From Methanoplanus endosymbiosus (lineage in GTDB: Archaea > Halobacteriota > Methanomicrobia > Methanomicrobiales > Methanomicrobiaceae), in the NCBI RefSeq assembly GCF_024662215.1, contig NZ_CP096115.1, positions 1,488,001-1,552,000 of the forward strand: a stretch of DNA of 64,000 nucleotides, in the 5' to 3' direction. The first letter of the stretch is position 1, and each line of letters opens with the position of its first letter. The notes beneath the pieces were generated by a model that saw only the letters and a list, made by a program, of their open reading frames with translations, did not search any database and was not told the DNA's origin. The translations under genes and the position numbers were made by a program. Of this stretch, positions 8,804 to 26,563 are shown in pieces.

Positions 8804-9901
8804 ATGCGGAAAAAGGGTTGCTCAGAAGAAGAAATCTTCTCTTTTCTATCTTTTGCAAGAGAAAAGGACAGAAAATACGATAAAGTTCTGTCATCAATGT
8901 GCACCATACCGCACCCTGTTGCGGTACGTGCACACAATATGTTTATTGAATCAAATCTCGGAGATCCAGGTCTTTTTGCAGGCACTGACGAACTGGAGAG
9001 CCTCTTAGTCAGAAAGATCGGTGAACTGATGCACATCCCGGATGCCTGCGGCTATGCAACATCAGGCGGCACTGAGTCAAATATTCAGGCACTGAGGATT
9101 GCAGGCAAACAGGCCCGTAAGAAGGTACCAAATGTTGTTGTTCCGGAATCTGTCCACTTCTCATTTGAGAAGGCATGCGATATCCTCTCATATGAACTGA
9201 GAACTGTTCCCTGTGATGGTAACCAGAGGATAGACACAGCAGTGCTTGAGGACTATATTGACAGAAACACAGTGTGTATAACAGGCATTGCCGGTTCAAC
9301 TGAATACGGCATCGTGGACCCGATAGAGCACCTATCAGACATATGTGTGGATCGGGAGATATTTCTTCATATTGATGCCGCATTCGGCGGTTTTGTCCTG
9401 CCCTTCCTGAAAAATCCCCCAAAATTTGACTTTGAACTGGACGGGGTATCAAGCATATCGGTGGACCCGCATAAAATGGGCATGTCAACCATTCCCTGCG
9501 GATGTTTTATAGCAAGGGATCCATCATATTTCAGGTCAACCGAGGTTGAGACACCCTATCTGACTGTGAAGAAGGAGTGTACCCTTCTGGGTACAAGGCC
9601 GGGCGGGCCTGTTGCCGGTGCACTGGCAGTTCTTGAATATCTCGGAAGAAGCGGTTTTGAAGAGATAGTTGAGAGGTGCATGAATAACAACAGAAGGCTC
9701 ATAGACGGCATGGCGGACTTGGGCTATGAAGTGGCCGTCCAGCCGGATGTAAACGTAGCCTCATTTATATGTGACCAAAGCCCCAATGGCTGGATAGTCT
9801 CAAGGACGAGAGCCGGGCATATGAGAACGGTCTGCATGCCCCACATTACAGAAGATATAATTGATGAATTTTTAAAGGATATTGGTGAGATGAATGTTTA
9901 A
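8804..9901 (+). CDS. mfnA: L-tyrosine/L-aspartate decarboxylase (PLP dependent)
   Basis: 365 residues, the usual MfnA length. Makes tyramine from tyrosine for methanofuran; archaeal members may also make beta-alanine from aspartate for coenzyme A. The PLP-binding lysine is in SVDPHKMGM (Lys224), with HIDAAFGGF upstream and [11 protein letters not shown] as the phosphate-binding region. The frame is open back to a TTG at 8771 inside ppsA, but ATG 8804 gives the conserved N-terminus. It overlaps hpt by eight bases, so the genes are coupled. Confidence 0.93.
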
Positions 9902-10445
9902 TAAGCTGACAGAGTCGCTGGAAAAATGCCCGATTGTTAAGAGAGGCGAATATAATTATTTTATACATCCGGTAAGCGACGGAGTGCCCATCGTTGAACC
10001 GTCACTCCTAAGGGAAGTTGCGGTTCTAATGGTAAAAAGTCTGGACCTTGAGGGCGTTACAAAGATTGTGGTCGCCGAGGCCATGGGCATACACATAGGG
10101 GTTGCACTCTCCCTTATGACTGACATTCCGCTCACAATTATCAGGAAGAGGGAGTACCAGCTTGAAGGTGAAATTGCCCTTCACCAGACTACAGGATATT
10201 CAAAAGGAGAGCTTTACCTCAACGGAATTGAGAAAGGCGAGAAGGTTGTTGTCATTGACGATGTATTCTCAACCGGAGGAACCATGAAGGCCATCCTTAA
10301 GGGCATTGCTGAGAAAGGTGCTGAGGTTTCAGATGTTCTTGTTGTAATCAAACGAGGAGAATGTGACATTGGAAGGCCATACAAATACCTCGTTGAGATT
10401 GAAGTGACCGGAGACGGTGTGCGTGTCACTGACACTAAATTCTGA
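9894..10445 (+). CDS. hpt: Hypoxanthine/guanine phosphoribosyltransferase (archaeal)
   Basis: 183 residues. Salvages hypoxanthine or guanine with PRPP to give IMP or GMP. The PRPP-binding loop [13 protein letters not shown] (about 116-128) and the archaeal-type N-terminus ([20 protein letters not shown]) identify the archaeal HPT group. It overlaps mfnA by eight bases and its end overlaps the start of dph2, making a tight operon mfnA-hpt-dph2. Substrate preference within purines cannot be read from the sequence. Confidence 0.9.
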
Positions 10446-11373
10446 TCTTTTAGAGAAGATTAAAGAATCAGGTGCTAAGACAGTTGCACTCCAGTTCCCT
10501 GAAGGCCTTAAAAGAAAGGCATTCCTTTTTTCAGAGCAGTTAAAAAAAGAGGGGTACAGGGTTTTCATCTCCGGAAATCCATGCTGGGGCGCCTGTGATC
10601 TCGACCTTGAGATACTCGGCCGGGCAGATATTCTGGTTCATTTCGGTCATGCACCTGTAGGTGATTTTGATAGGGTTATTTATGAGCCTTATTTCCAGAA
10701 GATTGAGATCAGAACGCTGGAAAAAGTGCTGCCACATCTGTCATCCGGAAATATATCCATTGTAACGACAGTTCAGCATGCTCCTCAGACAGATGAAATT
10801 ATAGAATTTTTCAGATCAAAAGGTTACTCATGCACAACAGGAAAAACCTCTGAGAGAACACCATACAGAGGGCAGGTGCTCGGATGCACGTACAGTGCCG
10901 CCAAGAATACCGGTGCTGACGAGATACTGTATATTGGCACAGGAGTATTTCATGCAATCGGAGTGAAACTTGCCACCGGAATAAAGGTGACTGCATTTGA
11001 TCCGGTCACAGGTGAGATTCAGGTTATTGATGAATCAAAGATGCTGAGAATCCGGTTCGCAAAGATAGAAAAAGCACGCAGTGCAGAGAAGACGGCCATT
11101 CTCGTCAGCACAAAATCGGGGCAGATCAGAGAGGAGCTTGCAGAGAGGCTCCTGTCGCTCTCCAAAAAGGCAGATATTGTATATATTAAAGAGATTACAC
11201 CCGATGCACTCCTCAATCTGGGTTATGAGGCATATGTCAATACAGCATGCCCGCGTCTTGCATATGACGATAATGTCCGCTTCCCCGCACCACTGCTCTC
11301 GCCTGAAGAGTATGAAATTCTTCTCGGTGTACGGGAGTGGGAAGATTATGAGATAGATGAGATTGTCAGATAA
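10423..11373 (+). CDS. dph2: 2-(3-amino-3-carboxypropyl)histidine synthase (diphthamide biosynthesis)
   Basis: First step of diphthamide synthesis on elongation factor 2. A non-classical [4Fe-4S] enzyme transfers the aminocarboxypropyl group of SAM to a histidine. The three family cysteines are visible, one per domain: GACD (Cys58), GCTYS (Cys155) and TACPRL (Cys276). Start uncertain: GTG 10423 has GGAG nine bases upstream, while GTG 10417 has only three bases of spacing. Either way it overlaps hpt by at least 20 bases. About 316 residues, normal for the archaeal homodimeric enzyme. Confidence 0.92.
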
Positions 11374-11503
11374 CAGGATGCCGGACAATCAGAGATTAAG
11401 CTGATTCCGGAGAACTCCTGCACCCTCAGGCAGTTCTGAATAATTATGGCCGGAGGGCCAGAGTAAATCCCGGAAAATAAGCATAAAAAGGCAGGTACAG
11501 CAA

Positions 11504-12109
11504 TTGAAACTAAGAAAACTTGAAATGATACTTCAGGGACTGAAGGATTTCAAAAATCCCGATGTATTCCTTGAACAGTACTCAACACCAGCAGAGGTCG
11601 CTGCCAGAATGCTCTACCACGCTTATATGAAAGGCGACATTGAAGATCTTAATATTCTGGACTTAGGGTGCGGAACAGGTGTTCTCTCCTGCGGTGCGGC
11701 ACTTCTGGATGCTTCTGAGGTTACAGGGATTGATACTGACAGCAGCGCACTTGCCATTGCTAAAGGTAATGCTGAAAAACTCTCACTGGACATCAGCTTC
11801 ATTGAGGCTGATATACAGGAGGTAAGTTGCGAAAACTTTGACACTGTTATTATGAACCCCCCTTTTGGTGCACAGAATAAACATGCTGACCGGCCTTTCA
11901 TCGACAAAGCGGTTGAATGTGCAGAGATAACCTACGGGATCTTCAATGAGGGGTCATCCGGTTTTGTAGGTTCATACCTTAAGGGAAAGGCGGTTGTGGA
12001 TGAGAAGATCAGGTGCGAATTCCCTATGAAGAGGACATTCTCCCATCACAAAAAGGACTGCGTTGAAATCCGCGTTGAAATTCTCCGAATCAGAAGGACA
12101 GAGGGCTGA
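11504..12109 (+). CDS. METTL5-like SAM-dependent methyltransferase (probable rRNA N6-adenine)
   Basis: 201 residues with the Rossmann methyltransferase core: motif I LDLGCGTGVLSCGA, acidic loop GIDTD, and the N6-adenine catalytic motif NPPF (118-121), followed by GAQNKHADRPFIDKA, typical of the METTL5 group. Human METTL5 methylates 18S rRNA; the archaeal substrate is an inference by homology. The start is TTG at 11504, preceded by AGGT, because the family N-terminus (KLRKLEMILQGL) begins there. It ends six bases before the MFS gene. Confidence 0.8.
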   Translation: MKLRKLEMILQGLKDFKNPDVFLEQYSTPAEVAARMLYHAYMKGDIEDLNILDLGCGTGVLSCGAALLDASEVTGIDTDSSALAIAKGNAEKLSLDISFIEADIQEVSCENFDTVIMNPPFGAQNKHADRPFIDKAVECAEITYGIFNEGSSGFVGSYLKGKAVVDEKIRCEFPMKRTFSHHKKDCVEIRVEILRIRRTEG

Positions 12110-12114
12110 CAACT

Positions 12115-13302
12115 ATGGAGAAAAGAGTCAGATCTGTGCTCGGACTTTCCGCAGCACACTGTATAAACGATATTTACTCACCCGTTCTTCCGGCAATACT
12201 GCCACTTCTGATTATTCAGGAGGGGTATTCATACTTCCTCGCCGGAATGCTGGTCACTGTCTATAACCTCTCGTCATCCTTCACACAGCCGGTTATCGGA
12301 TGGCTGTATGATAAAAAAGGCATAAGAATACCGATTCCAATATCAGTGCTGTTCTGTGCATTTTTCATGTCCTTTATAGGGCTTATGCACAGCTATGAGA
12401 TGATGCTCATATTTGCAATCGGAGGTGCACTCGGCCATGCCTTCTTCCATCCGAGTGCCCTTGGACTTGTAAGCCGGATTGCAAGCGGGCCGGACAGGGG
12501 AAGACTGACCTCACTCTTTGTTGTCGGCGGAAACTTAGGTTTTGCTATAGGGCCTGTGCTTGCCGGAATTCTGGTTGCATTCGGAGGGACAGATGCTCTC
12601 GTATTTCTGATAATACCGGCACTTGCAATTGCCATTGTTCTTAAAAAACTCCTGCCGCCGGTCTCTGAGCTTGAGAAGGATTATGCGAAAAACGATGATA
12701 ATTCCGGGAAGAAAAAATTCCCTGTCGGCCCGATATCCATGCTGGTAGCGGCATCTGCATTCAGGTCATGGGTCATCTTCTCATCAGTGGCCTTTATCCC
12801 GACATTTCTCACCACAAGAGGTTTTGATCTGATAACCGCAAACCTGCTGACATCACTCATGCTCATAGGAGGAGTTGCAGGCCAGATAATCGGCGCTACG
12901 ATGTCAGATAAATACGGCAGAAAGGAGTATATTATATTTGGAATGATAACCGCAATTCCGCCGTTCTTCCTCTTCCTTGCAACTGAGGGGATATTGTCGA
13001 TAATTGCAATGTTTGCATTCGGATACTTCCTCTGGTCCACATTCTCAGTTACGGTTGCAATGTCGCATGAACTCGCACCCGGAGGCACAGGTACGGTCTC
13101 AGGGCTTATGCTCGGTTTTGCAGTCGGTGCAGGCGGTGCAGGGGTTGCCGTTACCGGATATATTGCAGATCTTACATCTGCGCAGACGGCGTTTACATTC
13201 CTGATAATACCGATAATAGTTGCACTGGTACTCTTTATTCTCCTGCCATATCCATGGAAACTGTTAAAACGTGGCAGAACTCCGGCAGGGAAATTCAATT
13301 GA
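12115..13302 (+). CDS. MFS transporter, fosmidomycin-resistance-like
   Basis: 395 residues with about twelve hydrophobic segments and a central charged loop (about 185-205). The N-terminal signature AAHCINDIYSPVLPAILP and the following WLYDKKG loop match the fosmidomycin-resistance (Fsr) branch of the major facilitator superfamily. Known members export drugs by proton antiport; the natural substrate here cannot be told. It follows the METTL5-like gene closely. Its last eight bases overlap the end of the convergent HEAT-repeat gene. Confidence 0.85.
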   Translation: MEKRVRSVLGLSAAHCINDIYSPVLPAILPLLIIQEGYSYFLAGMLVTVYNLSSSFTQPVIGWLYDKKGIRIPIPISVLFCAFFMSFIGLMHSYEMMLIFAIGGALGHAFFHPSALGLVSRIASGPDRGRLTSLFVVGGNLGFAIGPVLAGILVAFGGTDALVFLIIPALAIAIVLKKLLPPVSELEKDYAKNDDNSGKKKFPVGPISMLVAASAFRSWVIFSSVAFIPTFLTTRGFDLITANLLTSLMLIGGVAGQIIGATMSDKYGRKEYIIFGMITAIPPFFLFLATEGILSIIAMFAFGYFLWSTFSVTVAMSHELAPGGTGTVSGLMLGFAVGAGGAGVAVTGYIADLTSAQTAFTFLIIPIIVALVLFILLPYPWKLLKRGRTPAGKFN

Positions 13303-14689
13303 ACCCATATATTTTTCTGTAGTGGGCAAATTCCTCGCCGGCAGCTTCGATAAGTTTCTTTCTCATTTCATGAGGAGATTTGTCCACAGCCTTCTGAATT
13401 TCAGCCATTGCATCCTCAGTTCCTATAAGCCCCAGTGACTCAACAATCCTCTCCTTAACCTGAGGGTCATCCTCATTAAAAAGCCTCTCAGATAACGCTT
13501 TTACAGTCTCATTGCCGGAGGTTTTACCAAGTGCTCCGGCGGCTGCAAGCCTTACACCCCTGACGGAATCGTTCAGAAGTGGGGTGAGGGACTCCGCATA
13601 TCTCCCGTCCCCAAGCCGCCCTACTGTCTTGGCAGACTCCCGGCGGACATAATGGTTCTCATCCTCAAGAAGCGGGATTATATATCTGAGTGATTCACTG
13701 ACACCAATGATACGCAGTGAGGTGATGCAGCCTGCCCTTATCTTCCAGCGCCCGTCAACCAGTGAGTCAATAAGAGGTGCTACCGCCGGCTCACCAATCC
13801 TTGCAAGTGCCTGAACAGCAGAGTTATGCACACGACGGGATCTGTCGCTCAGGGAATCTATCAGGGCACATATGTTATCAGGAGAACCGATTATACCAAG
13901 CATCTTTGCCGAGTTCTCCCTTACCGGAATAGAGTCATTACTCTCAAGCGCCTGTACCAGAAATTCCTCGGCAGGCCTTCCTATTGCAAGTATAGCAGAT
14001 TCAGTGTTGACCAGTATATCACGCTCATTTATCCGGAAAGATTCGATAAGCGGCATTATCTGTTCCGGAGGAATGGCCTGTGCAGATAAATCCGCCCCGG
14101 CACACGGTGAAATCAATCCTTTCTCCTGTCCTGCCGGATAACCCGCAGAACCGGCAGAGACTGAGGTTCCGGTCTGCACAGATATACCTGTGGCGGGAAA
14201 TGATTCTTCTTCTCTGACGGAGAGATCAGGGGAACCTGACGCTGTGATGCATGCATCCGGAGAAGACTGAGAAGATAGGGATTTCACTGTAGAATCCTTC
14301 TCATCCGCAACACCCGAATAGCCCGGAATTTTAAGTATGGCAAAGAAAACCCAGAGATATATTACTGAGGTAAATACCACAAACATCGCGTCAATGCCTG
14401 GTCCATAGAATATAAACGAGAAGAGAACCGAGACGAAGACAACCAGCAGTATTAAAAACTGAACAGTCCTGTGGCGGGGATACCACAATGCAGTGAGCAC
14501 AAGAGGGATGTAGATTAGATGCGGAGTCATTCTCGCAATGATATAGGCACTTTCATCAGTTTTTGAGGATGAAAAAGAGTAAAATCCCAGTATTGCAATG
14601 ACAATAAAATAAAGGATTATTACATACACCTTAATGAAATCCGAATGCCTTCCTGCTGTGAATTTCCTGTAATAATCTTTTTTATTCAT
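13295..14689 (-). CDS. HEAT-repeat protein with N-terminal membrane domain
   Basis: 464 residues. Four hydrophobic segments lie in the first 125 residues (about 20-38, 50-65, 72-92, 97-118). A low-complexity linker (about 125-205) and then tandem HEAT/PBS-lyase-type repeats of about 30 residues fill the C-terminus (for example AVQALARIGEPAVAPLIDSL and VRRESAKTVGRLGDG). HEAT repeats form protein-binding solenoids, so this is a membrane-tethered scaffold; partners are unknown. ATG 14689 has GGAG six bases upstream. Its 3' end overlaps that of the MFS gene. Confidence 0.8.
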   Translation of the reverse strand: MNKKDYYRKFTAGRHSDFIKVYVIILYFIVIAILGFYSFSSSKTDESAYIIARMTPHLIYIPLVLTALWYPRHRTVQFLILLVVFVSVLFSFIFYGPGIDAMFVVFTSVIYLWVFFAILKIPGYSGVADEKDSTVKSLSSQSSPDACITASGSPDLSVREEESFPATGISVQTGTSVSAGSAGYPAGQEKGLISPCAGADLSAQAIPPEQIMPLIESFRINERDILVNTESAILAIGRPAEEFLVQALESNDSIPVRENSAKMLGIIGSPDNICALIDSLSDRSRRVHNSAVQALARIGEPAVAPLIDSLVDGRWKIRAGCITSLRIIGVSESLRYIIPLLEDENHYVRRESAKTVGRLGDGRYAESLTPLLNDSVRGVRLAAAGALGKTSGNETVKALSERLFNEDDPQVKERIVESLGLIGTEDAMAEIQKAVDKSPHEMRKKLIEAAGEEFAHYRKIYGFN

Positions 14690-15027
14690 ATTATTCTCCG
14701 GATTTATTCAAGATAAACACAATAATTGCAGAGGGGAAAAATTACTATGACATCTCATATGAAATATAACTATTATTTTTTAAAATAGTCATTTAATAGT
14801 ATTATAACCTTCTTTTGTTATTTTAAGAGATAATATTCGGGACAATAGATAGTTATTTATGCGATGTCTAAAACATTTAGAATCTGACAGAAATATTCCG
14901 AGAGTGCCGGATTTCCGGATGGAATATACTCAATAAATAACTATGCCGGGCGGGTATAGATATAACATTACCATTATTCACAATTTCAAGCCGGAATTAT
15001 GACTAATAAAGATAAAGGGGATTTGCA
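14690..15027. other. Divergent intergenic region with a 12-bp inverted repeat
   Basis: 338 bases between the HEAT gene (minus) and the PAS gene (plus), very AT-rich, so promoters for both should lie here (for example around 14780-14812). Perfect 12-bp inverted arms, ATAGTTATTTAT (14849-14860) and ATAAATAACTAT (14933-14944), are 72 bases apart. This could be an operator or chance in AT-rich DNA. No open frame of note. Confidence 0.35.
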
Positions 15028-16080
15028 ATGAATACAAAAACTGAATTCAGAACTGATGAAGCAGGGCTTAAATTATGGGCCGAGGAGGAGGAGAAAAATC
15101 CTGAACTTATGTGGGAGAAGATCTATGACGCAATAGCTGATCCCATATTCATTCTGGACAGCACCGGTCTGCTATTGAGCATGAATAAGGCCTCCGAAGA
15201 ACTTCTCGAAGTTAAATTTCCGGATATAAAGGGCAGCAGGTGCTATGAGATAGTCCATAAAACAGCTACATTTATTGACGGCTGTCCATTCAGGAAATCA
15301 ATGAAATCAGGGGAGAGGGAGAGCTACAAACTTCAGATAGGGACACGCTGGTACAGGGTTTCGGTTGATCCGATAAAAAATTCAGGAGGGGATGTCATCG
15401 GAGCCGTCCATATAATTACCGACATTGATGAACTGATTAAGACCCATGCAAAACGCGCCCAGCTTGGAGCTGTAATAGAGAATACAGGAGAGGCTGTGAT
15501 AGGGACTGATCCTGACGGTATAATCGAGAGCTGGAACAACGGGGCAGAGGAGATATTTGGATTTACAGAAGATGAAATAACAGGCAAACCGTTCCTGAAA
15601 CTTATAAAGGAAGATCATACTGATGAGCCTGAGGAGATCATGAGAGATCTGAAGAAAAACTACCGGACCTCCGGAAGGGAATGGAAGATGATCAGAAAAG
15701 ACGGATCAGAAATTGAGATCGAACTCAGTTTTTCCCCGATATATGATGAAAGGGGAGTATTTTACGGGGCATCATATATCGGTCATAATATCGGCCCTCA
15801 AAGACTTGCCGAGAGAGAACTTCTGGCATATATGACTGAATCGTTCATCAGAATGAAAAAGCCGGTTGAGATAATCAACAGCAATCTCAGTGAGATCTCA
15901 GAACTTTATGAGAAGGATGAGATCAGTGCCGATGATACAAACGAGATGATAAAGATCCAGATTAAGAATGCGGAACAGATTCTCGCAAATCTCTATGATC
16001 TAAACAGAAAAATGGTTGAGAAAAAGATTGGAATTCCGGATGAATACTGCACATTCTTCCTTGAAAATGAGAATAAATAA
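15028..16080 (+). CDS. Tandem PAS-domain sensor protein without kinase domain
   Basis: 350 residues. PAS domain 1 covers about 25-135 (DAIADPIFILDSTGLLLSMN; a Cys-containing segment CYEIVHKTATFIDGCPF) and PAS domain 2 about 150-262 (GTDPDGIIESWNNGAEEIFGFTEDEITGK). The C-terminal 85 residues are helical and charged, with no histidine-kinase, GGDEF or output motif. AAGGGGAT precedes ATG 15028. The next gene (KaiC-like) starts 15 bases later with its own GGAGG, so the pair is probably one signalling unit. Ligand unknown. Confidence 0.85.
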   Translation: MNTKTEFRTDEAGLKLWAEEEEKNPELMWEKIYDAIADPIFILDSTGLLLSMNKASEELLEVKFPDIKGSRCYEIVHKTATFIDGCPFRKSMKSGERESYKLQIGTRWYRVSVDPIKNSGGDVIGAVHIITDIDELIKTHAKRAQLGAVIENTGEAVIGTDPDGIIESWNNGAEEIFGFTEDEITGKPFLKLIKEDHTDEPEEIMRDLKKNYRTSGREWKMIRKDGSEIEIELSFSPIYDERGVFYGASYIGHNIGPQRLAERELLAYMTESFIRMKKPVEIINSNLSEISELYEKDEISADDTNEMIKIQIKNAEQILANLYDLNRKMVEKKIGIPDEYCTFFLENENK

Positions 16081-16095
16081 ACAGAGGAGGAAATT

Positions 16096-16659
16096 ATGGA
16101 TCAGGCAGAAAGTATGGACACTGAAGAGACTATAACTGATGAAGAGAGCATTATCCTTTATTTTTCCGAACCGGAAAAAGGGCGTGCCACCAATACGAAG
16201 GTGATACAAAAATCCATAGATAAAGGCTACAGAGTGATAGTGGTCACCAATAATTTCCCCTCTAAAATTCTTGAAAAGCTCTATCTTAAAAACGGTATGA
16301 ATCCGGAGGAAGTATTTTTTATAGATTCTGTTACCTCATTTGCAGGGGGGAGTTCTGTAAAATCTGACAGCAACCATATAATGGTCAGAAGCCCGCAGGA
16401 CCTCACAGGCCTTTCGATGGCATTTTCTGATGCCTTAAAGAAGTTCAAAGAAGATCATATATTCATTCTCTTCGATTCACTGAGCACTATGCTCATCTAC
16501 CTGCCGGCTGACAAAGTGGTGAAGTTTATGCACTTTATTACAACAAAACTGCGGACACTTGAGGAATCAGGGGCAATCCTTGCAGTAAAAGGGGGTCTCG
16601 ACCCAATGCTCTACTCACAGATGGGATCACTTGTGGACGAAATCGTGGATGATGGATGA
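16096..16659 (+). CDS. KaiC/RecA-fold protein lacking Walker A
   Basis: 187 residues. The order of strands and the Walker B-like HIFILFDSLSTML followed by KVVKFMHFITTKLRTLEESG match the core of KaiC/Rad55-like ATPases, but the place where a P-loop is expected reads SEPEKGRATN with no GxxxxGK[ST]. It therefore probably does not hydrolyse ATP in the usual way. Similar P-loop-free KaiC-like proteins occur beside PAS sensors in archaea (DUF835-like groups are an alternative assignment). Co-transcribed with the PAS gene; a partner or output role for it is inference. Confidence 0.6.
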   Translation: MDQAESMDTEETITDEESIILYFSEPEKGRATNTKVIQKSIDKGYRVIVVTNNFPSKILEKLYLKNGMNPEEVFFIDSVTSFAGGSSVKSDSNHIMVRSPQDLTGLSMAFSDALKKFKEDHIFILFDSLSTMLIYLPADKVVKFMHFITTKLRTLEESGAILAVKGGLDPMLYSQMGSLVDEIVDDG

Positions 16660-16824
16660 TAAGCAAACCCCGGTATTTATACGGAATTTCCGGAACGCAG
16701 CAATCAAAGCAGAGATCATTATTCAGGATTTACAGATTCCGGCACAAAATTCCAGGATCATACCACATTTAAATATAAACAGAACCAATATTTTCAGGAA
16801 ATTTTAGTTACAATATTGCTATGA

Positions 16825-16850
16825 ACTCCCGTGGTGTAGCGGTCAATCAT
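16825..16850 (+). pseudogene. 5' fragment of a tRNA-Gln gene
   Basis: 26 bases corresponding to tRNA positions 1-26: acceptor strand ACTCCCG, TG, then GTGTAGCGGTCAATCAT. The last 17 bases are identical to the intact tRNA-Gln at 18741-18813. The anticodon arm, T arm and 3' acceptor strand do not follow, and no matching 3' half was found in the window. An AT-rich box A-like sequence (TTTAAATATAAA, about 16769) lies upstream, as for a real tRNA gene. The break coincides with the end hairpin of a TnpB element, which suggests disruption by insertion followed by loss of the other half. Confidence 0.7.
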
Positions 16851-16891
16851 GTTATGAAAATTGATAAACTCAGTATCAATTAACTTCATAA
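16851..16891 (-). repeat. Right-end hairpin of the first TnpB element (possible omega RNA 3' end)
   Basis: A 15-bp stem with a 3-base bulge: on the minus strand TTATGAAGTTAATTGATA, loop CTGAGTT, then TATCAATTTTCATAA. It overlaps the last codons and TGA stop of tnpB at 16876. In IS200/IS605-type elements the transposon right end forms the 3' scaffold of the omega RNA, and the guide is the DNA immediately beyond. Here the next minus-strand bases are the tRNA-Gln fragment. Hairpin seen directly; RNA function inferred. Confidence 0.5.
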
Positions 16892-18126
16892 GATGTAATC
16901 AAACATCTTTTTGGGTGTAACACTACACCCTCTATCCCATCCGCAAATGCATTTGGGAGTGCTTTTCTAATAATATTAAGTGCGCCATTGACATCAGCAT
17001 TAATCAATTTTCCTTCTTTGGACCTGAACATCCCACGCTGAATACGTCTGCCGCAATATTCTGTATGTTTGCAGACTTTTTCATTGTCAAGAAAACTACA
17101 TTTTGATGTATAACTTTCTTCATTTACTATAATAATTATACCACAATCTTCAGCTTTGTATTGAAGCATATGGATTAATCTGTTAAACGGAAGATTTACA
17201 AAATTCTGGTTGTTACGTTTACCCATGTTGGATTCCTGTTTCCAGCCATTATTTTTACCAATTACAATTGTACCCACATTATGCTCTTTACAGTAATTAA
17301 CGATAAATCTGCTAAGTTTATGAAAATAATCATTTATTTTTAAATTCCGGGAATAGTAAAGCTTTTCGAGTTTTTTACCGGATTTAATTTTCTGTAAATC
17401 ATATATACTTTGTAATCTACCTTTTTTCTTATTATAAAACTGATTTATGCTCTTAACAACGCCGCCCTTAACAACAGTTGGCTGCTCACCAAAGTTATTT
17501 GCAATAGTTACAATGTTTGATACTCCTAAATCAATTCCTATAACATTCGATTCATCTAAATCATCACATTTTACCTCTATTTTATAAACAATCTCACACA
17601 CCAGATCAAACTGATTTGGTATGATTCTGACTTCTCTCAAATTTATATCGTCCGGTAATCTCGTTTTTAATGTCAGTTGTACTCGTTTTGGAAATTTAAG
17701 ATAACCATCTTTGATCTTAACCTGCTGATTCGTAAAAACTAATAGGTTAACACCATCTTTAGGTTTATATTTCGGCAAACTCGGTCTGCCATTATATTTA
17801 TCCGGATGTTTTTCCCAATCTTTGATAGATTCAAAAAACGATTTCCAGTTTCTATCAAAAACCATTAAAATCTGTTGAGATGTCTTTGCAGGAAGTTGTT
17901 TATAACAACCCTGACATTTAACCAAAGTATATAATTCATTATATCTAATCCATCTTTGATTATGGATATATTCCTGACGAACGACATAATTTGAATAATT
18001 GTATAAATTTTTTGATAGGTGGCACATATTTGAAACTACATCCGATTTGAAATGTATTTGTTCCGTGCGTACCACTTCAATCATTATTTGGAGTAGGTCA
18101 ACAAAATATATACTGGTTTCGGACAT
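16876..18126 (-). CDS. tnpB: TnpB-like RNA-guided nuclease/transposase accessory protein (divergent clade)
   Basis: 416 residues as drawn; ATG at 18084 (MIEVVRTEQIHFKSD) may be the true start, and neither has a clear ribosome binding site. RuvC-like motifs: GIDLG (Asp199) and NADVNGALNI (Asp378). The usual RuvC-II glutamate position reads TIVIGKNNGWKQE and the zinc-ribbon region (SKCSFLDNEKVCKHTEYCG) lacks two clean CxxC pairs, so catalysis is uncertain. This is a different clade from the tnpB at 19552. No TnpA partner is in the window. The 3' end overlaps the element hairpin. Codons are more AT-rich than in neighbouring genes. Confidence 0.85.
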   Translation of the reverse strand: MSETSIYFVDLLQIMIEVVRTEQIHFKSDVVSNMCHLSKNLYNYSNYVVRQEYIHNQRWIRYNELYTLVKCQGCYKQLPAKTSQQILMVFDRNWKSFFESIKDWEKHPDKYNGRPSLPKYKPKDGVNLLVFTNQQVKIKDGYLKFPKRVQLTLKTRLPDDINLREVRIIPNQFDLVCEIVYKIEVKCDDLDESNVIGIDLGVSNIVTIANNFGEQPTVVKGGVVKSINQFYNKKKGRLQSIYDLQKIKSGKKLEKLYYSRNLKINDYFHKLSRFIVNYCKEHNVGTIVIGKNNGWKQESNMGKRNNQNFVNLPFNRLIHMLQYKAEDCGIIIIVNEESYTSKCSFLDNEKVCKHTEYCGRRIQRGMFRSKEGKLINADVNGALNIIRKALPNAFADGIEGVVLHPKRCLITSYEVN

Positions 18127-18740
18127 TACGTCAATTTTAAATTGATATTGTTGCGTAGTGCTACATATTATTATAATTATTAAAAAATCAAACTATATAT
18201 TGCAGTTTTCCTTTTAACATCTTTACTCCACGTCCGCTCATTTCAAAAGGTAAATGATCAAATTTGATTAGATATTGCTATATTTGGAGCTATTTTTGTA
18301 ATTAGGGCTACATGTAGCATATTCTGGGCCAGCAAATTATATGTAGCGGATTGGATAATATTCCTATTTTGTTCTGCACATTGGGAATAATATGATCTTT
18401 TTGGGACAAAGTCCGGGTGATTTTAGAACATTCGTCTCAATCTGTGATTTATGATTTAGAATGAGTGAAAGGACAGTTATAAGTAATTTATAACCGGCAT
18501 TCCCGGCACACATAACTATGGAGTGAAAAATAAGAGATAATTTATTTATGATTTTCATTTTGGCGGCATATTACCAGCATTCTGAAAATGTTTGCCTCCG
18601 TTGTGTGTTGCGACAGACACATAACGAGCACAATTATATTCATCAATAAATGTCACCCCGTTTAGAATTTAAGCCGAAATTCAGCCATTTTTAATGTGAT
18701 TCGTTATGAATTTGCGGGAATCTAGGTTATAAGTAATTAA
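18127..18740. other. AT-rich non-coding stretch left of the first tnpB
   Basis: About 610 bases with no convincing gene. It should contain the left end of the first TnpB element, but I could not place it. A perfect palindrome GCTACATGTAGC lies at 18307-18318, and related GCTACAT/ATGTAGC words occur near 18158 and 18340. The 64-codon open frame at 18364-18558 (minus) has no family resemblance or ribosome binding site and is not called. Confidence 0.4.
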
Positions 18741-18813
18741 TACCCCTGGGCGGATTCGAACCGCCGTTTCCAGCTCCAAAGGCTGGAATGATTGACCGCT
18801 ACACTACAGGGGT
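18741..18813 (-). tRNA. tRNA-Gln (anticodon UUG)
   Basis: 73 bases without encoded CCA. The acceptor stem ACCCCTG pairs with CAGGGGT over seven base pairs, with discriminator A. Anticodon stem CCAGC/GCTGG carries loop CTTTGGA, giving anticodon TTG. T arm GGCGG-TTCGAAT-CCGCC is perfect. No intron. Transcribed from the minus strand, with an AT-rich box A about 27 bases upstream. The integrase pseudogene ends 82 bases upstream, so this gene may once have been an integration site. Confidence 0.95.
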
Positions 18814-18835
18814 TCTGTAAAATTGGAATATAATG

Positions 18836-18848
18836 TTTATTTTTAAGG
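18836..18848 (-). promoter_or_regulatory. Box A promoter of tRNA-Gln
   Basis: On the minus strand CCTTAAAAATAAA is centred about 28 bases before the mature 5' end, the usual distance of an archaeal TATA element from the transcription start of a tRNA gene. Confidence 0.5.
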
Positions 18849-19446
18849 TTTAAAATTTCTTGTTATCTCTCATCGCTATAACCTGCCTTAATCTATCAAT
18901 TCTGATTATTCAGTTCACTCTGATCAATCTGAATATTTGCAAGCTTTGCCGCAACAAAGGCCTGAAAGTCTGACTGCTGCATAAGCATAGATGCAGCGGT
19001 CTGAGCCATCATATCTTCCTTCTGCTGCTTTAATGCAAATTCCCTGTCAAGAATTAATTAACATGAATTACAGTAAATCGCACCATATGAGTATATTGTT
19101 GAGCAGCGCGGGCAAATTCGCGGTTTATAATCATCCTTCAGCTCCTCCGGCTCTTCAATACCTGCATTTGAAAGCAGCTTATTTCTCACCACACTCTTCT
19201 GCGACCGGATATAATGTATGTTGGCAACCAAACTTCCGGCAACCCATCCGTAACGGATCTCCATCTCCTTTTGAGTGAATATCTGTGAATAATAAGTAGC
19301 TGAACCACTTCTCACAGCCTTTGGAGTGAATATTTTAATCAGCCCGGCCTTATTCCTCCAGCCCTTGAATTTTACTGAAACAGTTCTGTGATTAAGTGGT
19401 TTATTCTCCTGCACCCAGCGGTCACCTGCAAGCTTAAGAGTATTGA

Positions 19447-19551
19447 GTGAACTACCTCTGGGCTAAAGACCCAGAGGCTTCCTGCTTCATACCTCGGAGC
19501 AACCTCCACAAGTCCACAGGCCCTTCCCCTCGTTCCAAGGGTGTAAAGATA
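19447..19551 (-). ncRNA. Putative omega RNA 3' scaffold of the second TnpB element
   Basis: Non-coding part of the element between the tnpB stop and the right end. It contains the terminal hairpin CCTCTGGG-loop-CCCAGAGG and GC-rich upstream sequence (including AGGTATGAAGCAGG on the minus strand), also present in the 166-bp relative at 27626. In characterised TnpB systems this region plus the end of tnpB is the omega RNA, and the bases just outside are the guide: here TCAATACTCTTAAGCTTGCA (19446-19427). The RNA itself is inferred; its 5' limit probably lies inside tnpB. Confidence 0.6.
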
Positions 19552-20664
19552 TTATATTCCAATTAGATTCTGTCTATCAAGAGCAAATTTCCTGATATTT
19601 ATTGCAGCATTTATATCTCTGTCGTGATGCATTCCACAGTCAGGACAAACCCAGTCCCTTACTGACAAAGTCATTTCAGAGTTGTAATACCCACAATTGC
19701 TACAAATCTTTGTAGATGGTTCAAACTGTCCTATCTGCAATATGGTCTTACCATATCTTTCTGCTTTATATTTTAATTTTTCAAAAAAAGCAGACCATCC
19801 GACATCAGAGATACTTTTTGCTAATTTATGATTTTTAAGTAAATTTTCAACTTTCAATGTTTCAACTGCTATTGCTTGGTTCTCGCTTACAAATCGAAAA
19901 GAGATTTTATGCTGAAAATCATTGCGTTGATTACTTACTTTTTCATGTTTTTTGGCTAATTGTAATTTTGCTTTCTTGAAATTTGAAGAACCTTTCTTTT
20001 TCCGGCTAAGCCTTCTCTGAAGAACTTTTAACCGTGTTTCTGAATTTTTCAAGAACTTTGGATTGTCGTATTTCCTGCCTTCTGATGTAACGACAAAGTC
20101 CTTTATACCTACATCAAGACCAATTGTAGTACTGGCATTAAATATTTTAGTTTTGGGATACTCTATACCGTCATCAACAAGAATACTTATGAAATATTTT
20201 CCTGCGTTATTCCGGGAAACAGTTGCAGTCTTTAGATCTCCATTAAACTGTCTATGAAATATTGTTTTAACAACCCCGATTTTAGGTAACTTAACAAAAT
20301 TCCGATCAAGATTAACAAAATACCCTTGAGGAACAGAAAATGACTGAACTGGATTTTTTCGTGATTTAAATTTAGGAAATCCTTTTTTCTCTCTAAAAAA
20401 TCTAGTAAAAGCATTATCGAGATGTAATGTGGCTCCCTGAAGAGATTGTGAATTAACTTCCTTTAACCATTCATTTTCTTGTTTTAGTTCCGGAAGCATC
20501 TTGTTTAAAACAAATCTCGATACTGATTTTCCATCAGTTTCATAAGATTTTATCTTTATTTCAAGTGCAAAATTATATACAAATCTACAAGCACCAAAAT
20601 GTTGTTCAAATTTTTCAATTTGATATTTTTTTGGATACATTCTAAATTTGTAAGCAATTAACAT
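19552..20664 (-). CDS. tnpB: TnpB, RNA-guided RuvC nuclease (complete)
   Basis: 370 residues from ATG 20664 (MLIAYKFRMYPK); an eight-codon upstream extension is open but unlike the family. All expected residues are present: Asp184 in GLDVG, Glu268 in AVETL, zinc-ribbon cysteines 321, 324, 340 and 343, and Asp350 in HDRDINAAINI. It therefore looks catalytically intact. Known for the family: omega RNA-guided DNA cleavage next to a short TAM, which helps the transposon persist. It lies in an element inserted in the integrase gene, oriented along the same strand. Confidence 0.95.
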   Translation of the reverse strand: MLIAYKFRMYPKKYQIEKFEQHFGACRFVYNFALEIKIKSYETDGKSVSRFVLNKMLPELKQENEWLKEVNSQSLQGATLHLDNAFTRFFREKKGFPKFKSRKNPVQSFSVPQGYFVNLDRNFVKLPKIGVVKTIFHRQFNGDLKTATVSRNNAGKYFISILVDDGIEYPKTKIFNASTTIGLDVGIKDFVVTSEGRKYDNPKFLKNSETRLKVLQRRLSRKKKGSSNFKKAKLQLAKKHEKVSNQRNDFQHKISFRFVSENQAIAVETLKVENLLKNHKLAKSISDVGWSAFFEKLKYKAERYGKTILQIGQFEPSTKICSNCGYYNSEMTLSVRDWVCPDCGMHHDRDINAAINIRKFALDRQNLIGI

Positions 20665-21184
20665 GCATATAATAGTTAAACCTAACATATTAAATACTTT
20701 ACGTTAGTTATATTATATTGTCGCTTACATCCCCTTGGCTAAAGACCAAGGGGTTTTACGCTAATCTTATAAAGGCGCATCAGGATCTTTATTGAATTTG
20801 TGATGCCTAAACCATTCCTGAACATCAGGAATGCTGTTTATGAACTCAACCATCCTCTCACCCGCCTTACCCCTGAGAAAGACTTCACCATAGTTCAGAT
20901 GGATTCTAACATCCTTTATCCGGACATTAACAATCTCACTCCTTCTTGCTCCGGTCTCAAACATAAAATTAAGGAGAACCTTATCCCTGAGATTCTCAAT
21001 AACACCAAGAATCAGATCAATATCTTCACAGGTTATGTGATCTTTTGGCGGGACTTTAGGCCTCCGGGGCTTAATATCAGAAAAGTAATCTTTCCTCTTA
21101 TCAGGCTGAATAAAATCACAGAATAATTTCAAAGACTACACTTCACCGTATATTGTGGATTCACTTTTGACATTGAGAATAGAG

Positions 21185-21429
21185 CCTAAGTTTGACAGTT
21201 CATGTATTTCCACCCATTTGTGGCAAAAAAGAATTTGACAGTTGCATACTTTTGCAGAATAATCTCTCAAAATATCCTTAATTTGAGCTTAGATTTAATA
21301 TGACATGAACATTCTAAAAATAAAACTCCCATTTTACCCTTAAATTTGGTCAACTGTCATATACAATTCCGGCTTTTTTGGATATTTTGTGGGTGTAAAA
21401 TAGATTTTTGAACAAGTGTCAAACTTGGG
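21185..21429. mobile_element. MITE-like 245-bp element with terminal inverted repeats and 6-bp target duplication
   Basis: Ends CCTAAGTTTGACAGTT (21185-21200) and the inverted CCCAAGTTTGACACTT (21429-21414) match at 14 of 16 bases. ATAGAG flanks both sides (21179-21184 and 21430-21435) as a target-site duplication. Internal copies of TTTGACAGTT (21234) and AACTGTCA (21352) repeat the terminal motif. No coding capacity. Removing the element and one ATAGAG restores the integrase frame (EEYYFSILNVKSESTIYGEV). The parent transposon was not identified. Confidence 0.82.
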
Positions 21430-21654
21430 ATAGAGAAATAATATTCTTCAAGTTCTTCCTTCCCTGCAACCTTAAAATCATTAAATCCGGTAAATTTTAA
21501 AAAATGGTATATTCTCCAGATATGAGTTCTGACAGTCTCCGGTTTTTACCATAAAGGATCATTCTCCGGCGATAGTTCTCAAGATGATTAAGATTAACAG
21601 GATCTATATCCGGCAAAACACCAGGGCTGACATACTCATAATTTGACATAATAA

Positions 21655-21700
21655 GTGAACTACCTCTGGGCTAAAGACCAAGGGGCTTTATGCTTGTTTT
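21655..21700 (-). mobile_element. 46-bp collapsed remnant of the IS605-type element
   Basis: On the minus strand: TTTAC flank, AAAACAAGCATAAAGCCCC (left-end-like), then TTGGTCTTTAGCCCAGAGG and GTAGTTCAC (right-end). It is a fusion of the left half of the left hairpin with the right half of the right hairpin, so the whole interior is deleted, probably by recombination between the two hairpins, which share a loop. It sits six bases before the integrase start codon. Confidence 0.75.
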
Positions 21701-21777
21701 GTAAACCCGGATTCCGGATTTTCTTAACCGGAATAAAATAGAGGCATAACTCTATTAATCACCGGAATAAAAACTTC

Positions 21778-22479
21778 ATGAATAATATGGGAAAAACCCG
21801 GAAAAATAATCAAAAAAATAATACAAATATCCCGGACGAGAAAAATAATAATCTGCGTGGGCATCTTGACTCATTTTTAAAGAGTGAAGATCCTGTAAAA
21901 AGCACAATAAGAGACATTCTCTGGGTAGTTGTTGTTGTTGGAGTTATAGCGGCAGGATTATTTCTCTTCTCAGGCACATGGCCGGCAGTGGTAGCCGTAG
22001 AATCGGAGAGTATGGTCCCCAATATGAATATAGGAGACCTCATCTTTGTTGTGGAAGAAGACAGGTTCGGAGAACTTCAGACCTGGATGGACGGAACTGT
22101 AACTGGCTATGGTAAGTTCAACAGCGAACCCGACCTTCAGGGCAGAACAGTCTATGGTGATGTGATCATCTACAAACCAAACGGCGATGAATCTGTTCAC
22201 CCCATCATCCACAGGGCTGTCGAATGGTATGAAGGAAATACAGGCAGCGGTTATATAACAAAAGGGGACAACAACCAGATAGCCGACCAGTTAAGTGGCA
22301 TATCAGGAATAGGACAGATAATGCCGGTTAAGAAGGAATGGATTGTCGGAAAAGCACTCTTTTCAATACCATTAATTGGATATGCCCCCCTGCACATAGT
22401 GGAATTTGCTATAATATTAATTCTGATAATGGTTGTGCATGAACTGTACATACGATCAGACAGGAGAGATAAGAAATGA
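21778..22479 (+). CDS. Archaeal type I signal peptidase
   Basis: 233 residues. One transmembrane segment (about 46-66) is followed by the catalytic domain: Ser78 in ESESMVPNM, His145 in PIIHRAVEW (archaeal/ER-type enzymes use His where bacteria use Lys), and Asp164/Asp170 in KGDNNQIAD. A second hydrophobic segment is at the C-terminus (about 203-222). It removes signal peptides outside the membrane, and would process products such as 1122-2408. The Asn/Lys-rich first 30 residues are not conserved in the family, and a later start (Met4) is possible. Four-base overlap (ATGA) with cofH. Confidence 0.92.
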   Translation: MNNMGKTRKNNQKNNTNIPDEKNNNLRGHLDSFLKSEDPVKSTIRDILWVVVVVGVIAAGLFLFSGTWPAVVAVESESMVPNMNIGDLIFVVEEDRFGELQTWMDGTVTGYGKFNSEPDLQGRTVYGDVIIYKPNGDESVHPIIHRAVEWYEGNTGSGYITKGDNNQIADQLSGISGIGQIMPVKKEWIVGKALFSIPLIGYAPLHIVEFAIILILIMVVHELYIRSDRRDKK

Positions 22480-23567
22480 ACCAGAAGAACCTGAAAACAC
22501 TCCTTGAGGATACCCTTGAAGGCCACCGCCTTACAGTGACAGAAGCAGAACAGCTCTTTAAGGTAAAGGGCAGAGATGTATGGGAGATCGTATCAGCAGC
22601 AGACAGGCTGCGTGAGGAGAAGGTCGGAGATACGGTAACATATGTCAGAAACCAGAACATTCATATAACAAACATATGCAAAAACCTCTGCGGCTTCTGC
22701 GGATTCGGGAAGCCGAAAAACTCACAGGATGCCTTCATCTTCAGCACTGAGGATATGATCAGAGGCGCAATGCTCGCAAAAGAGAGGGATGTCACCGAAG
22801 TCTGCCTCCTGTCAGGCGTTCATCCGGACTTTGACACTGAAAGATGTGCAGATATAATCAGAACAATCCACCATGTCATCCCGGATGTGGACATACATGC
22901 CATGAGTCCGGATGAGATAATCCACTGTGCAGACAAAAGCAATATATCAACAGAAGAAGTCCTGGAAATATTCCGTGACGCAGGAATAGGAACATTACAG
23001 GGCACTGCCGCAGAGATTCTTGTAGATGATATAAGAAAGATAATCTGCCCGCTTAAACTCTCAACATCAGAATGGGTGAGGATCATCAAGGAAGCCCATC
23101 ATATGGGAATGAAATCAACAGCAACCATAATGTATGGCACAGTTGATAATGGATCAGACCGGGCAGAACACCTTGGAGTACTACGGGATATACAGGATGA
23201 AACAGGCGGCTTTACAGAGCTTGTAACCCTTCCATTCCTCCATAAAAATACAAAACTCTACGAGAGAGGGCTTACACCCGCAGGAGCAACCGGAAGGGAA
23301 GACATACTGATGTTTGCAGTATCAAGGCTCTTTCTGGACAACTTTGACAATGTGCAGGTCGCCTGGGGAAAATTAGGAAACAAATTCACACAGCTCGCCC
23401 TTATGGCAGGAGCAAACGACTTCGGCGGCACAATGTTTATGGATTCAGTCTCAGTTGAAGCCGGAGGAGAAGACTCCGATTACCTGGACCCCGCTGAGAT
23501 GAAAAGAATCGCAGAGGATGCAGGCCGGAAACTCAGGCAGAGAGATACAAAATATAATCTGATCTAA
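22476..23567 (+). CDS. cofH: FO synthase subunit 2 (5-amino-6-ribityluracil-tyrosine transferase)
   Basis: 363 residues. With CofG it makes the deazaflavin FO of coenzyme F420, by radical-SAM coupling of tyrosine-derived and ribityl-uracil moieties. The SAM-cluster cysteines are in NICKNLCGFCGF (68, 72, 75). HAMSPDEI and GTAAEILVDDIRKIICP separate CofH from CofG and from menaquinone enzymes. The ATG overlaps the signal peptidase stop, an odd coupling of unrelated functions. cofG is not in the window. Confidence 0.92.
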   Translation: MNQKNLKTLLEDTLEGHRLTVTEAEQLFKVKGRDVWEIVSAADRLREEKVGDTVTYVRNQNIHITNICKNLCGFCGFGKPKNSQDAFIFSTEDMIRGAMLAKERDVTEVCLLSGVHPDFDTERCADIIRTIHHVIPDVDIHAMSPDEIIHCADKSNISTEEVLEIFRDAGIGTLQGTAAEILVDDIRKIICPLKLSTSEWVRIIKEAHHMGMKSTATIMYGTVDNGSDRAEHLGVLRDIQDETGGFTELVTLPFLHKNTKLYERGLTPAGATGREDILMFAVSRLFLDNFDNVQVAWGKLGNKFTQLALMAGANDFGGTMFMDSVSVEAGGEDSDYLDPAEMKRIAEDAGRKLRQRDTKYNLI

Positions 23568-23658
23568 GAGAAAATTCCAAATAATATTTTTCCCGATCAT
23601 TAAAGCAGATCACTTTTGATGAACCTTAATGCACCAGACAAAAACCCGGCAGATAAAT

Positions 23659-25746
23659 TCAGATTCTGCCAAGCCTTCTTAGTTCTGCCCTGACTATACG
23701 CACCTCACTGGCAGTGATGCAGAGATCAGAACAATTCACAATATCCTTAATCCCGCTTCCGGGACTGAGAAGAATTTTATCAGAGATTAACTCTACCTTC
23801 CTATAGGGCAGAATATCCCCCAGATCAATCACCTCACCAGACTCTATCATATCTGCAATATGAAGTGATACAATATCAGGATTCAGTCCCCTCTCCTCTG
23901 CAATCTCTGCCAGAGTATAGCCGCCCCTGAAAAATTCAAGCGTAACTTCAGCAGATTTCAAATGAGTGGCACTCTTTTCAGAAGCATCAGGAGAAATCCG
24001 GGCAGCATTATCCGAATCTGTGGAAATAGATGAATTAATCAGTTTGAGAAACTGCCTGCCGTAATTCTGAGCCTTCACATCCCCGATTCCCTTTATCTCT
24101 TTAAGACCGGAGATATCAGCCGGCCTGTTCCTGACCATTGCTGAAAGGACAGAGTTTGAGAGGATTAGACAGGGCATTATACCCTTATCCTGCGAGATCT
24201 CCTTCCTGAGAGACTTCAGCTTATCCAGCAGAATCTCATCATCAGCGGAAAGAGCAGGGGCCTCTTCAGCCCCGGACGGTGGAGCAGGAGATCTCTTTCT
24301 GCCCTTACCTTTCTTCCCGGCTACTTTAAACCTGACTGAGAGATTTCCGGAGAGAAAATCATTAACCCTCTCTCCTGAAGAGATTACCGGGTATTTCTTC
24401 CCGGTCCTGCACAGAATACCCGAACTTATCATCTGATTTATAAAAGAGGATAACTCCTGCCTCGAATAATTCTTTCCGCTTCCAAAGGCCCTCAGGCTGT
24501 CATGGCCCCTCCCCTTAACCTTCTTCGATTTTGAGCCACGGATTATATCGGAGATATGGGTAGAACCATACGGGGTTCCGGCTTCCATCACACAGTCAAG
24601 AATAAGTCCTGCCACTTCCCGTCCGTCAATATATTCAGGAGGATTTATGCAGTTGTCACAACGCCCGCACCTCTCTGTTGCTGCCTCTCCGAAGTACTTC
24701 AGCATATATAAGACCCGGCATCTCTCAGACTCACAGAACTCAGTCATTACATCGAGCTTTTCCCTTGCAACCCTCTTCTGCTTCGCACTCTGCATCTTTC
24801 CGATGAAATACTCAGCCTTAACCAGATCCCCCCTGCTGTAGAACAGTATGCAGTCTGAAGCTTCACCATCCCTTCCGGCACGCCCTGTCTCCTGATAATA
24901 TCTCTCAAGATTTGGCGGAAGGTCATAGTGCAGCACATACCTGACATCAGACTTGTTAATTCCCATGCCGAAAGCTACAGTGGCAACTACGACAGAGACC
25001 ACGCCTTTGATGAACTTCTCCTGTGTCCTTGTCCTTTCATCCTTTGGCAGACCTGCATGATAAGGCAGGGAATAGACGCCATACGAATTCAGCTTCTTTG
25101 CCAGATTTTCAACTGAATTCCTGCCGGAGCAGTATATAATGCCACTCTCACCTTTCTTCCGTCTGATATACGAGAGAATCTGCCCCAGAACATCCACCTT
25201 CTCCCTCACTTCATAATTCAGATTGCTTCTCCTGAAACTGCCAATATGGATGAAAGGATCTGTTAACTTAAGCTGCCGGAGGATATCATCCCTCACCGCC
25301 GGATTCGCAGTTGCAGTGAGTGCAATGACAGGCACACCCGGAAATTCCTTTTTGATCAGGTTAAGCTGCCGGTATTCCGGCCTGAACTCATGGCCCCACT
25401 GTGAGATGCAGTGAGCTTCATCCACAGCAAAAAGTGAGATCTTCGCATTTTTAAGAAGTTTTCTGAATGAGTGTGAGGCCATCTTTTCGGGCGAGACATA
25501 TAACAGATCGATTTCCCCCCGTCCGGCATCAGCTGAAATCCGCCCATAATCCCGGATATCAAGACTGCTGTTGAATGACTCGGCATAAATTCCACTCTTC
25601 CGGAGGGAATCTGTCTGGTCCTTCATAAGAGAGATCAGCGGAGAGATGACAACCCCCATACCATCTGAGAGCAGTGCCGGGAGCTGATAGCAGATCGACT
25701 TGCCACCCCCTGTTGCAACTACGCCAAGTACATCCCTGCCGGACAT
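23659..25746 (-). CDS. recQ: RecQ-family ATP-dependent DNA helicase (start codon unclear)
   Basis: 695 residues from ATG 25746. Motifs: ATGGGKS (I), VDEAHCIS (II), ALTATA (III), [10 protein letters not shown] (VI), RecQ zinc site [11 protein letters not shown]...CGRCDNC, a winged helix, an HRDC domain (about 510-585) and a further winged helix ([20 protein letters not shown]). The frame continues upstream with family sequence ([21 protein letters not shown]), including the aromatic/Gln motif 0 region, but no ATG, GTG or TTG occurs before the in-frame TGA at 25858-25860. The 5' end is therefore mutated, uses a rare start, or holds a base error. Confidence 0.9.
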
Positions 25747-25860
25747 TACAGCATCAATAATCTCTTCCTGATAGGGATAGAGGGAATCATAGCCAAAATG
25801 CTTCTTTAAGAGATAACACCTCCGGGAACTGCTGCTTATACCGGCACACTCCAGGATTCA

Positions 25861-26563
25861 GACATAAAACTCATTAACCTGTACACGTTTGGATCTCCGG
25901 AAAAATTAAGGTTCATATCATAGGGCACTGTCTGAAAAATCAGTTACGAATAATAATAATCAAGCAAAAATTAGATTAACAGCCAATCTAAACCCAGATT
26001 ATCTGTTTCAGAGATTACGCCACTGAAAAATATGACTCTGCCCGAACAGAGACAAATTTAAGATAGTCATTCATGAGCCAGCGGGTTCACAGATGTTGGA
26101 GGAAACAAATGTTTCATATGAGTATATCACAGGAATATTTTGGACCGGGTAAAACGCCGGCCCCTCATCTCCTGCCAGAAATTCTGAACCTGTCTATATC
26201 CTTCTCCATAATAACGGACATTCCATTTACATAATCCATAGCAGAGAGCAGACACATACGATATGCATCACCAGATAACAGAATGGATAAATCATACAAA
26301 ACATCCACTACATAGAAAGTTTAAGCAAAATACAGAACAATAGAGGAATTATACCCAAATACACAATATAACCCACATAACTGGAGATATTATGTATTCA
26401 GACCCATAGAGATGATTAAAAAAACAGGAGAAGCAGAGATAATTAATTATAATTACAATAACAACAAGAAAATATTTACCAAACAGTTAATAGAGATATT
26501 TTTTAAATAATAATGGATTAGAGTAGTTCAGTTATTCCTCATGCAATAACTCGGGATTTTTAA
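25861..26563. other. Long intergenic region
   Basis: About 700 AT-rich bases between recQ and the small TPR gene. It holds the two-hairpin repeat at 26066-26122. A 47-codon minus-strand frame (GTG 26308 to TGA 26165) is open but has no ribosome binding site or recognised family. The last 100 bases before 26564 are extremely AT-rich (a promoter is likely around 26500). Nothing else is supported. Confidence 0.4.
26066..26122 (+). repeat. Two-hairpin 57-bp repeat, copy 1
   Basis: 50 of 57 bases match copy 2 at 52883-52939, with no gaps. Hairpin 1: TGAGCC, loop AGCG, GGTTCA. Hairpin 2: GAAAC, AAAT, GTTTC. The difference inside stem 1 (A to G opposite T) keeps pairing possible in RNA. No gene starts within 400 bases downstream. 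It could be a small RNA, an RNA-binding site or a palindromic intergenic repeat. Confidence 0.6.

What the first reader, a model, noticed from the sequence alone, without database searches (positions are those of the whole stretch)
16825..16891. TnpB right-end hairpin abuts half a tRNA-Gln gene; the positional guide matches the surviving tRNA-Gln
Only one base separates the 16852-16891 hairpin from tRNA positions 1-26. If this element works like other TnpB systems, its guide begins ATGATTGACCGCTACAC, which is identical to 18788-18804 in the intact tRNA-Gln (mismatch at position 18). The element would then target the cell's remaining tRNA-Gln gene, or be domesticated to sense it. The missing 3' half shows that the locus rearranged after insertion.
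Basis: partly seen in the sequence, partly recalled or inferred. Interest (0 to 1): 0.7.

Follow-up and report, generated by a model that had tools for sequence, protein, structure and literature searches.

The report
Transposon TnpB inserted in tRNA-Gln gene
A small mobile element carrying the RNA-guided nuclease TnpB landed inside this archaeon's tRNA-Gln gene, so its guide RNA matches that gene by origin; the spare tRNA-Gln gene that serves the cell lacks the short signal the nuclease probably needs, so self-targeting or a sensing role is unlikely.

Summary
A same-genus genome (G001) has an intact tRNA-Gln(TTG) at this place, and homology resumes at window 21714. In the window that gene stops after nucleotide 24 (16848), and a TnpB element's right end abuts it. 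The right end is 16849, not 16852: two other right-end remnants in this genome also finish ...TTTCATAACAT, and relatives finish ...ATAACCT. The guide therefore begins GATTGACCGCTACACCACGG. Related elements insert after RTAT (10/10 and 4/4 copies; one insertion checked against uninterrupted homologues). The G001 site reads GTAT|GATTGACC, so the site fits ordinary insertion and guide capture.

The intact tRNA-Gln(TTG) (18741-18813) shares 15 guide bases, with mismatches at 16, 19 and 22, and has GAAT where RTAT is expected. The match is tRNA homology; the guide best fits the allele that was destroyed. Sensing or domestication has no support. A weak cut at GAAT cannot be excluded.

The surviving tRNA-Gln(TTG) resembles other genera more than G001, suggesting it was acquired and replaced the broken gene.

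The parts
16825..16848 (+). 5' remnant (nt 1-24) of the ancestral tRNA-Gln(TTG) gene
   Evidence: colinear with intact tRNA-Gln(TTG) in G001, L071 7997-8069; one base different
16829..16848 (-). predicted positional guide (first 20 nt: GATTGACCGCTACACCACGG)
   Evidence: sequence directly after the right end at 16849; transcription and use as guide inferred from the TnpB family
16849..16960 (-). right end and omega-RNA scaffold: stems GGGTGT/ACACCC, AGATGT/ACATCT and the terminal hairpin, then CATAACAT
   Evidence: conserved in nine right ends, 9 of 24 pairs with compensatory changes; same terminus at two other places in this genome
16876..18087 (-). tnpB gene, 403 aa from the ATG at 18087 (reading frame open to 18126)
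   Evidence: OrfB_IS605 and Cas12f1-like_TNB; 54-63% identical relatives in other archaea; RuvC motifs as in relatives
18160..18201 (-). probable zone of the element's left end; exact base not fixed
   Evidence: RTAT motifs at 18164, 18194 and 18196 at about the distance seen in G176 elements
18741..18813 (-). intact tRNA-Gln(TTG), probably acquired, functional replacement of the broken gene
   Evidence: ARAGORN, Rfam 64 bits; closer to G015, G005 and G002 than to G001
18786..18804 (+). GAAT followed by the 15 nt shared with the guide: protospacer-like match without RTAT
16849..21713 (.). mosaic block absent from G001: TnpB element, repeats, intact tRNA-Gln, broken integrase gene, second TnpB element
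   Evidence: G001 homology stops at 16850 and resumes at 21714; repeats

Best explanation
A TnpB-only element of the IS200/IS605 group (about 1.3 kb) inserted on the minus strand of the ancestral tRNA-Gln(TTG) gene directly after the motif GTAT. This cut the gene after nucleotide 24 and made the flank GATTGACCGCTACACCACGG the positional guide of its omega-RNA. Shown by sequence comparison: the insertion site, the right end, the motif in relatives and at the G001 site, and the flank sequence. Inferred from the TnpB family: TnpB uses this guide to cut copies of the empty site, which helps the element stay in place. The 3' half of the gene and about 160 bp were later lost in a rearrangement that joined the element to a block carrying a different tRNA-Gln(TTG), which now does the job. 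The match to the surviving tRNA-Gln genes is tRNA homology. They lack RTAT, so they are probably neither cut nor regulated.
For: Intact gene at the same place in G001. Same right-end terminus at three places in this genome with unrelated flanks and a like terminus in relatives. RTAT before the left end in 10/10 G176 copies and ATAT in 4/4 G079 copies; joined flanks of one G176 copy match uninterrupted homologues. G001 site GTAT|GATTGACC with 25 of 26 guide bases matching. Surviving tRNA-Gln genes have GAAT and ACAT; ACAT also precedes the guide at the element's own right end. Conserved omega-RNA stems.
Against: The left end and the motif beside it cannot be read in this genome because the tRNA 3' half is gone. 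The TAM is inferred from insertion sites, not from cleavage. No transcript data. An archaeal TnpB with a flexible TAM exists (PMC11043419), so GAAT could be a weak TAM.
Confidence: 0.82

Rival explanations
1. The TnpB-guide complex acts on the surviving tRNA-Gln(TTG) gene (cuts or represses it), or has been domesticated as a sensor of tRNA-Gln: the first reader's idea.
For: 15-nt uninterrupted match, within the 12-16 bp heteroduplex reported as enough for TnpB cleavage (PMC12803034); flexible TAM in a Sulfolobus TnpB (PMC11043419).
Against: GAAT instead of RTAT; mismatches at 16, 19 and 22; the same 15 nt match in tRNA-Gln(CTG) with ACAT, which also precedes the element's own perfect match. 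On weak TAMs the Sulfolobus enzyme needed a full match (PMC11043419). Cutting an essential gene would be costly. RuvC motifs are not lost as in nuclease-dead repressors.
Confidence: 0.08
2. The fragment is an attachment-site scar of an integrative element whose tyrosine integrase lies in the block (18915-21648), and the TnpB element came later beside it.
For: A broken integrase gene lies in the block, and integrase relatives sit next to tRNA genes in other genomes.
Against: The remnant is a 5' half and lies inverted to the intact tRNA, whereas attachment sites are direct repeats, usually of the 3' part. In relatives the tRNA lies upstream of the integrase start; here it lies beyond its 3' end. 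The junction at 16848/16849 is exactly a TnpB right end after a GTAT site.
Confidence: 0.05
3. The intact tRNA-Gln(TTG) is an old duplicate of this lineage and not an acquired gene; the TnpB insertion then simply hit the dispensable copy.
For: 73 nt carry little phylogenetic signal; in G002 a similar tRNA-Gln also lies inverted about 3 kb from the same gene pair.
Against: By the tRNA-Gln pattern no relative searched shows more than one full TTG gene beside the CTG gene. The intact gene is nearer to G015, G005 and G002 than to G001, and its 48 nt upstream align best with G002.
Confidence: 0.2

Closest known systems
TnpB-only elements of the IS200/IS605 group (IS1341-like) with omega-RNA/reRNA
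   Same: OrfB_IS605 and zinc-ribbon domains, right-end hairpin scaffold ending at the element border, positional guide from the flank, insertion after a short fixed motif without target duplication in relatives
   Different: Motif inferred as RTAT; no tnpA in the element; the glutamate of RuvC-II is not at the usual place, a conserved E in (N/Q)EES(Y/H)TS may stand in (inference)
Sulfolobus islandicus TnpB7 (PMC11043419)
   Same: Archaeal IS605-type TnpB; short guide; sequence directly after a conserved right end acts as guide
   Different: TAM TTTAA there, RTAT inferred here; different right-end sequence
TnpB gene drive of IS200/IS605 elements in plasmids (PMC11870625)
   Same: Guide records the insertion site so that copies without the element can be cut
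   Different: Shown there on plasmids; here only inferred for a chromosome
TldR, nuclease-dead TnpB derivatives used as RNA-guided repressors (own knowledge)
   Same: TnpB-like protein with a guide matching a host locus
   Different: Here RuvC motifs equal those of mobile relatives, and the guide is the flank of a fresh insertion

Membership tests
IS200/IS605-group TnpB element | tnpB with OrfB_IS605 and C-terminal TNB domains | tested here: met
IS200/IS605-group TnpB element | Structured right end forming the omega-RNA scaffold, with a fixed terminus | tested here: met
IS200/IS605-group TnpB element | Insertion after a fixed motif without target duplication | tested here: met
   for relatives; at this locus on the right side through G001
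IS200/IS605-group TnpB element | Left end with subterminal hairpin next to the motif | tested here: inconclusive
   left flank rearranged, several RTAT candidates
IS200/IS605-group TnpB element | Y1 transposase to move it | tested here: inconclusive
   none in the element; two Y1 genes elsewhere in the genome, one with a stop
Active RNA-guided TnpB nuclease | RuvC catalytic residues D, E, D | tested here: inconclusive
   both D present; E not at the usual place but a conserved E shared with multi-copy relatives
Active RNA-guided TnpB nuclease | Cleavage of TAM-flanked target | not testable with these tools
   needs an in vitro assay
TldR-type repressor | Loss of RuvC catalytic residues | tested here: not met
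   motifs as in mobile relatives
tRNA attachment-site scar of an integrative element | Direct-repeat attachment sites, usually of tRNA 3' sequence | tested here: not met
   5' half, inverted to the intact tRNA; 3' part absent

The most novel reading that the evidence does not exclude
TnpB homing fixed a disruptive insertion in an essential tRNA gene across the chromosome copies of an archaeon, and the cell escaped only because an acquired tRNA-Gln(TTG) lacks the TAM (GAAT instead of GTAT): a tRNA gene replaced under pressure from an RNA-guided nuclease.
Probability: 0.12. Interest if true: 0.6.

Novelty: new member of a known kind. Interest (0 to 1): 0.34.

Why it matters
It is a natural case in which an omega-RNA guide, its probable TAM and the empty site can all be read from sequence, and in which the disrupted gene is very likely essential and was replaced. 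It gives RTAT as a testable TAM for an archaeal TnpB subfamily. It also shows that guide matches to paralogous tRNA genes can arise without any regulatory role.

Tried and rejected
The lost tRNA 3' half was searched for in the window and is absent. Rfam gave only the intact tRNA and one hit far below its cut-off. Bacterial relatives of TnpB (mainly cyanobacteria) were not used for ends. The left end could not be fixed: the other right-end copies in this genome are truncated remnants, and G334, the nearest protein relative, shows no clear right end. Paper searches for a relocated catalytic glutamate and for TnpB with TldR and tRNA found nothing usable. An attachment-site origin of the fragment was rejected on geometry. 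A role of G002 as direct donor was considered; the 73-nt gene is too short to decide.

Full report
What is there. The window lies at G000:C1:1488001-1552000 of a 3.16-Mb chromosome; gene content suggests a methanogenic archaeon (inference). On the plus strand 16825-16848 carries the first 24 nt of a tRNA-Gln gene. Directly beside it begins the right end of a tnpB gene on the minus strand, 16876-18087, reading frame open to 18126. The protein has OrfB_IS605 and Cas12f1-like_TNB domains. An intact tRNA-Gln(TTG) is at 18741-18813 on the minus strand.

The fragment is a broken gene. In G001, a genome of the same genus, window 8960-14750 and 14760-16850 align with L071 1-5798 and 5945-8022, and window 21714-25922 with L071 8229-12436. 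Between them G001 has a whole tRNA-Gln(TTG), 7997-8069, identical to the 24-nt fragment but for one base. G008, G013, G015 and G019 also have a tRNA-Gln(TTG) within about 2.5-4 kb of the same gene, in the same orientation. So the ancestral gene stood here, and window 16849-21713 replaced its 3' part and about 160 bp downstream. No trace of that part remains in the block.

The element end. TTTATCAATTTTCATAACAT occurs three times without mismatch in this genome, and the DNA to its right is different each time: GATTGACC here, AACTTTC at 2957161, GATCCGC at 801385. Elements with TnpB 53-58% identical from several genera finish ...ATAACCT or a close variant. Nine right ends share three stems, with compensatory changes in 9 of 24 pairs.

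The motif. In G176 all ten left ends follow RTAT; in G079 four of four follow ATAT. One G176 insertion lies in a gene; its joined flanks match uninterrupted homologues in many genomes of that genus, with the motif present once. The G001 tRNA reads ...CCGGTAT|GATTGACC... on the minus strand. Site, motif and right end therefore agree with a normal insertion. This is inference from insertion sites; cleavage was not measured.

Does the guide fit the surviving tRNA genes? The G001 allele matches 25 of 26 guide bases, with GTAT. Intact tRNA-Gln(TTG) matches the first 15 and differs at 16, 19 and 22, with GAAT. tRNA-Gln(CTG) at 1448344 matches the first 15, differs at 16, 19, 23 and 26, and has ACAT. 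ACAT is also what precedes the perfect match at the element's own right end, which an active TnpB must spare. In Sulfolobus an archaeal TnpB accepts weak TAMs but then needs a full guide match (PMC11043419); TnpB cleavage needs roughly 12-16 bp (PMC12803034). Targeting of the tRNA genes is therefore improbable, though not excluded for the TTG gene. The RuvC motifs equal those of mobile relatives, so there is no sign of conversion to a repressor.

The known role that fits. TnpB guides record the insertion site and cut copies lacking the element, which favours its retention or spread (PMC11870625). The guide here fits the lost empty site and so fits that role. This is inference; no transcript or activity data were available.

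The replacement. By the tRNA-Gln pattern this genome has two full tRNA-Gln genes, one CTG and one TTG. The intact TTG gene is nearer to those of G015, G005 and G002 than to G001's, and its upstream 48 nt align best with G002. Acquisition and replacement is the simplest account; 73 nt cannot prove it. A TTG anticodon is needed to read CAA (general knowledge), so the second gene was probably present before, or at the time, the first was lost.

The block 16849-21713 is a mosaic. It holds a second TnpB element, 19446-20774, with more than ten relatives in this genome, and repeats at 18225-18480, 18492-18733, 21185-21429 and 21649-21711. It also holds a broken integrase gene whose C-terminal piece carries a zinc ribbon. 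Integrase relatives elsewhere often sit beside tRNA genes, but the geometry here differs and the remnant is a 5' half, so it does not look like an attachment-site scar. The order of events beyond 'TnpB inserted into tRNA-Gln' is not resolved, and the left end of the element is not fixed to the base.

Verdict.

Noticed in passing
window 18915-21648 (-): Broken tyrosine integrase gene (start MSNYEYVSPGVLPDIDP... near 21648, C-terminal zinc ribbon ending near 18915), interrupted by a repeat at 21185-21429 and by the second TnpB element at 19446-20774.
   Followed up: partly
window 19446-20774 (-): Second TnpB element with a canonical zinc finger; more than ten relatives at 71-98% identity in this genome, one of them next to a Y1 transposase gene with a stop codon.
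   Followed up: partly
G000:C1:801385 (L252) and G000:C1:2957161 (L254): Truncated right ends of the same TnpB element family: about 49 nt (96% identical) and 112 nt (86%), without a tnpB gene; they may be remnants or solo omega-RNA sources.
   Followed up: partly
window 18492-18733 and L004 1798-2041: A roughly 240-bp repeat (67% identical) lies near both tRNA-Gln genes of this genome, TTG and CTG.
   Followed up: no
window 16876-18087 (-): This TnpB subfamily lacks the RuvC-II glutamate at the usual place; a conserved glutamate in (N/Q)EES(Y/H)TS may replace it.
   Followed up: partly
L072 (G002) 5962-6037: In G002 the tRNA-Gln(TTG) near the same gene pair is inverted relative to G001 and most other family members.
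   Followed up: no
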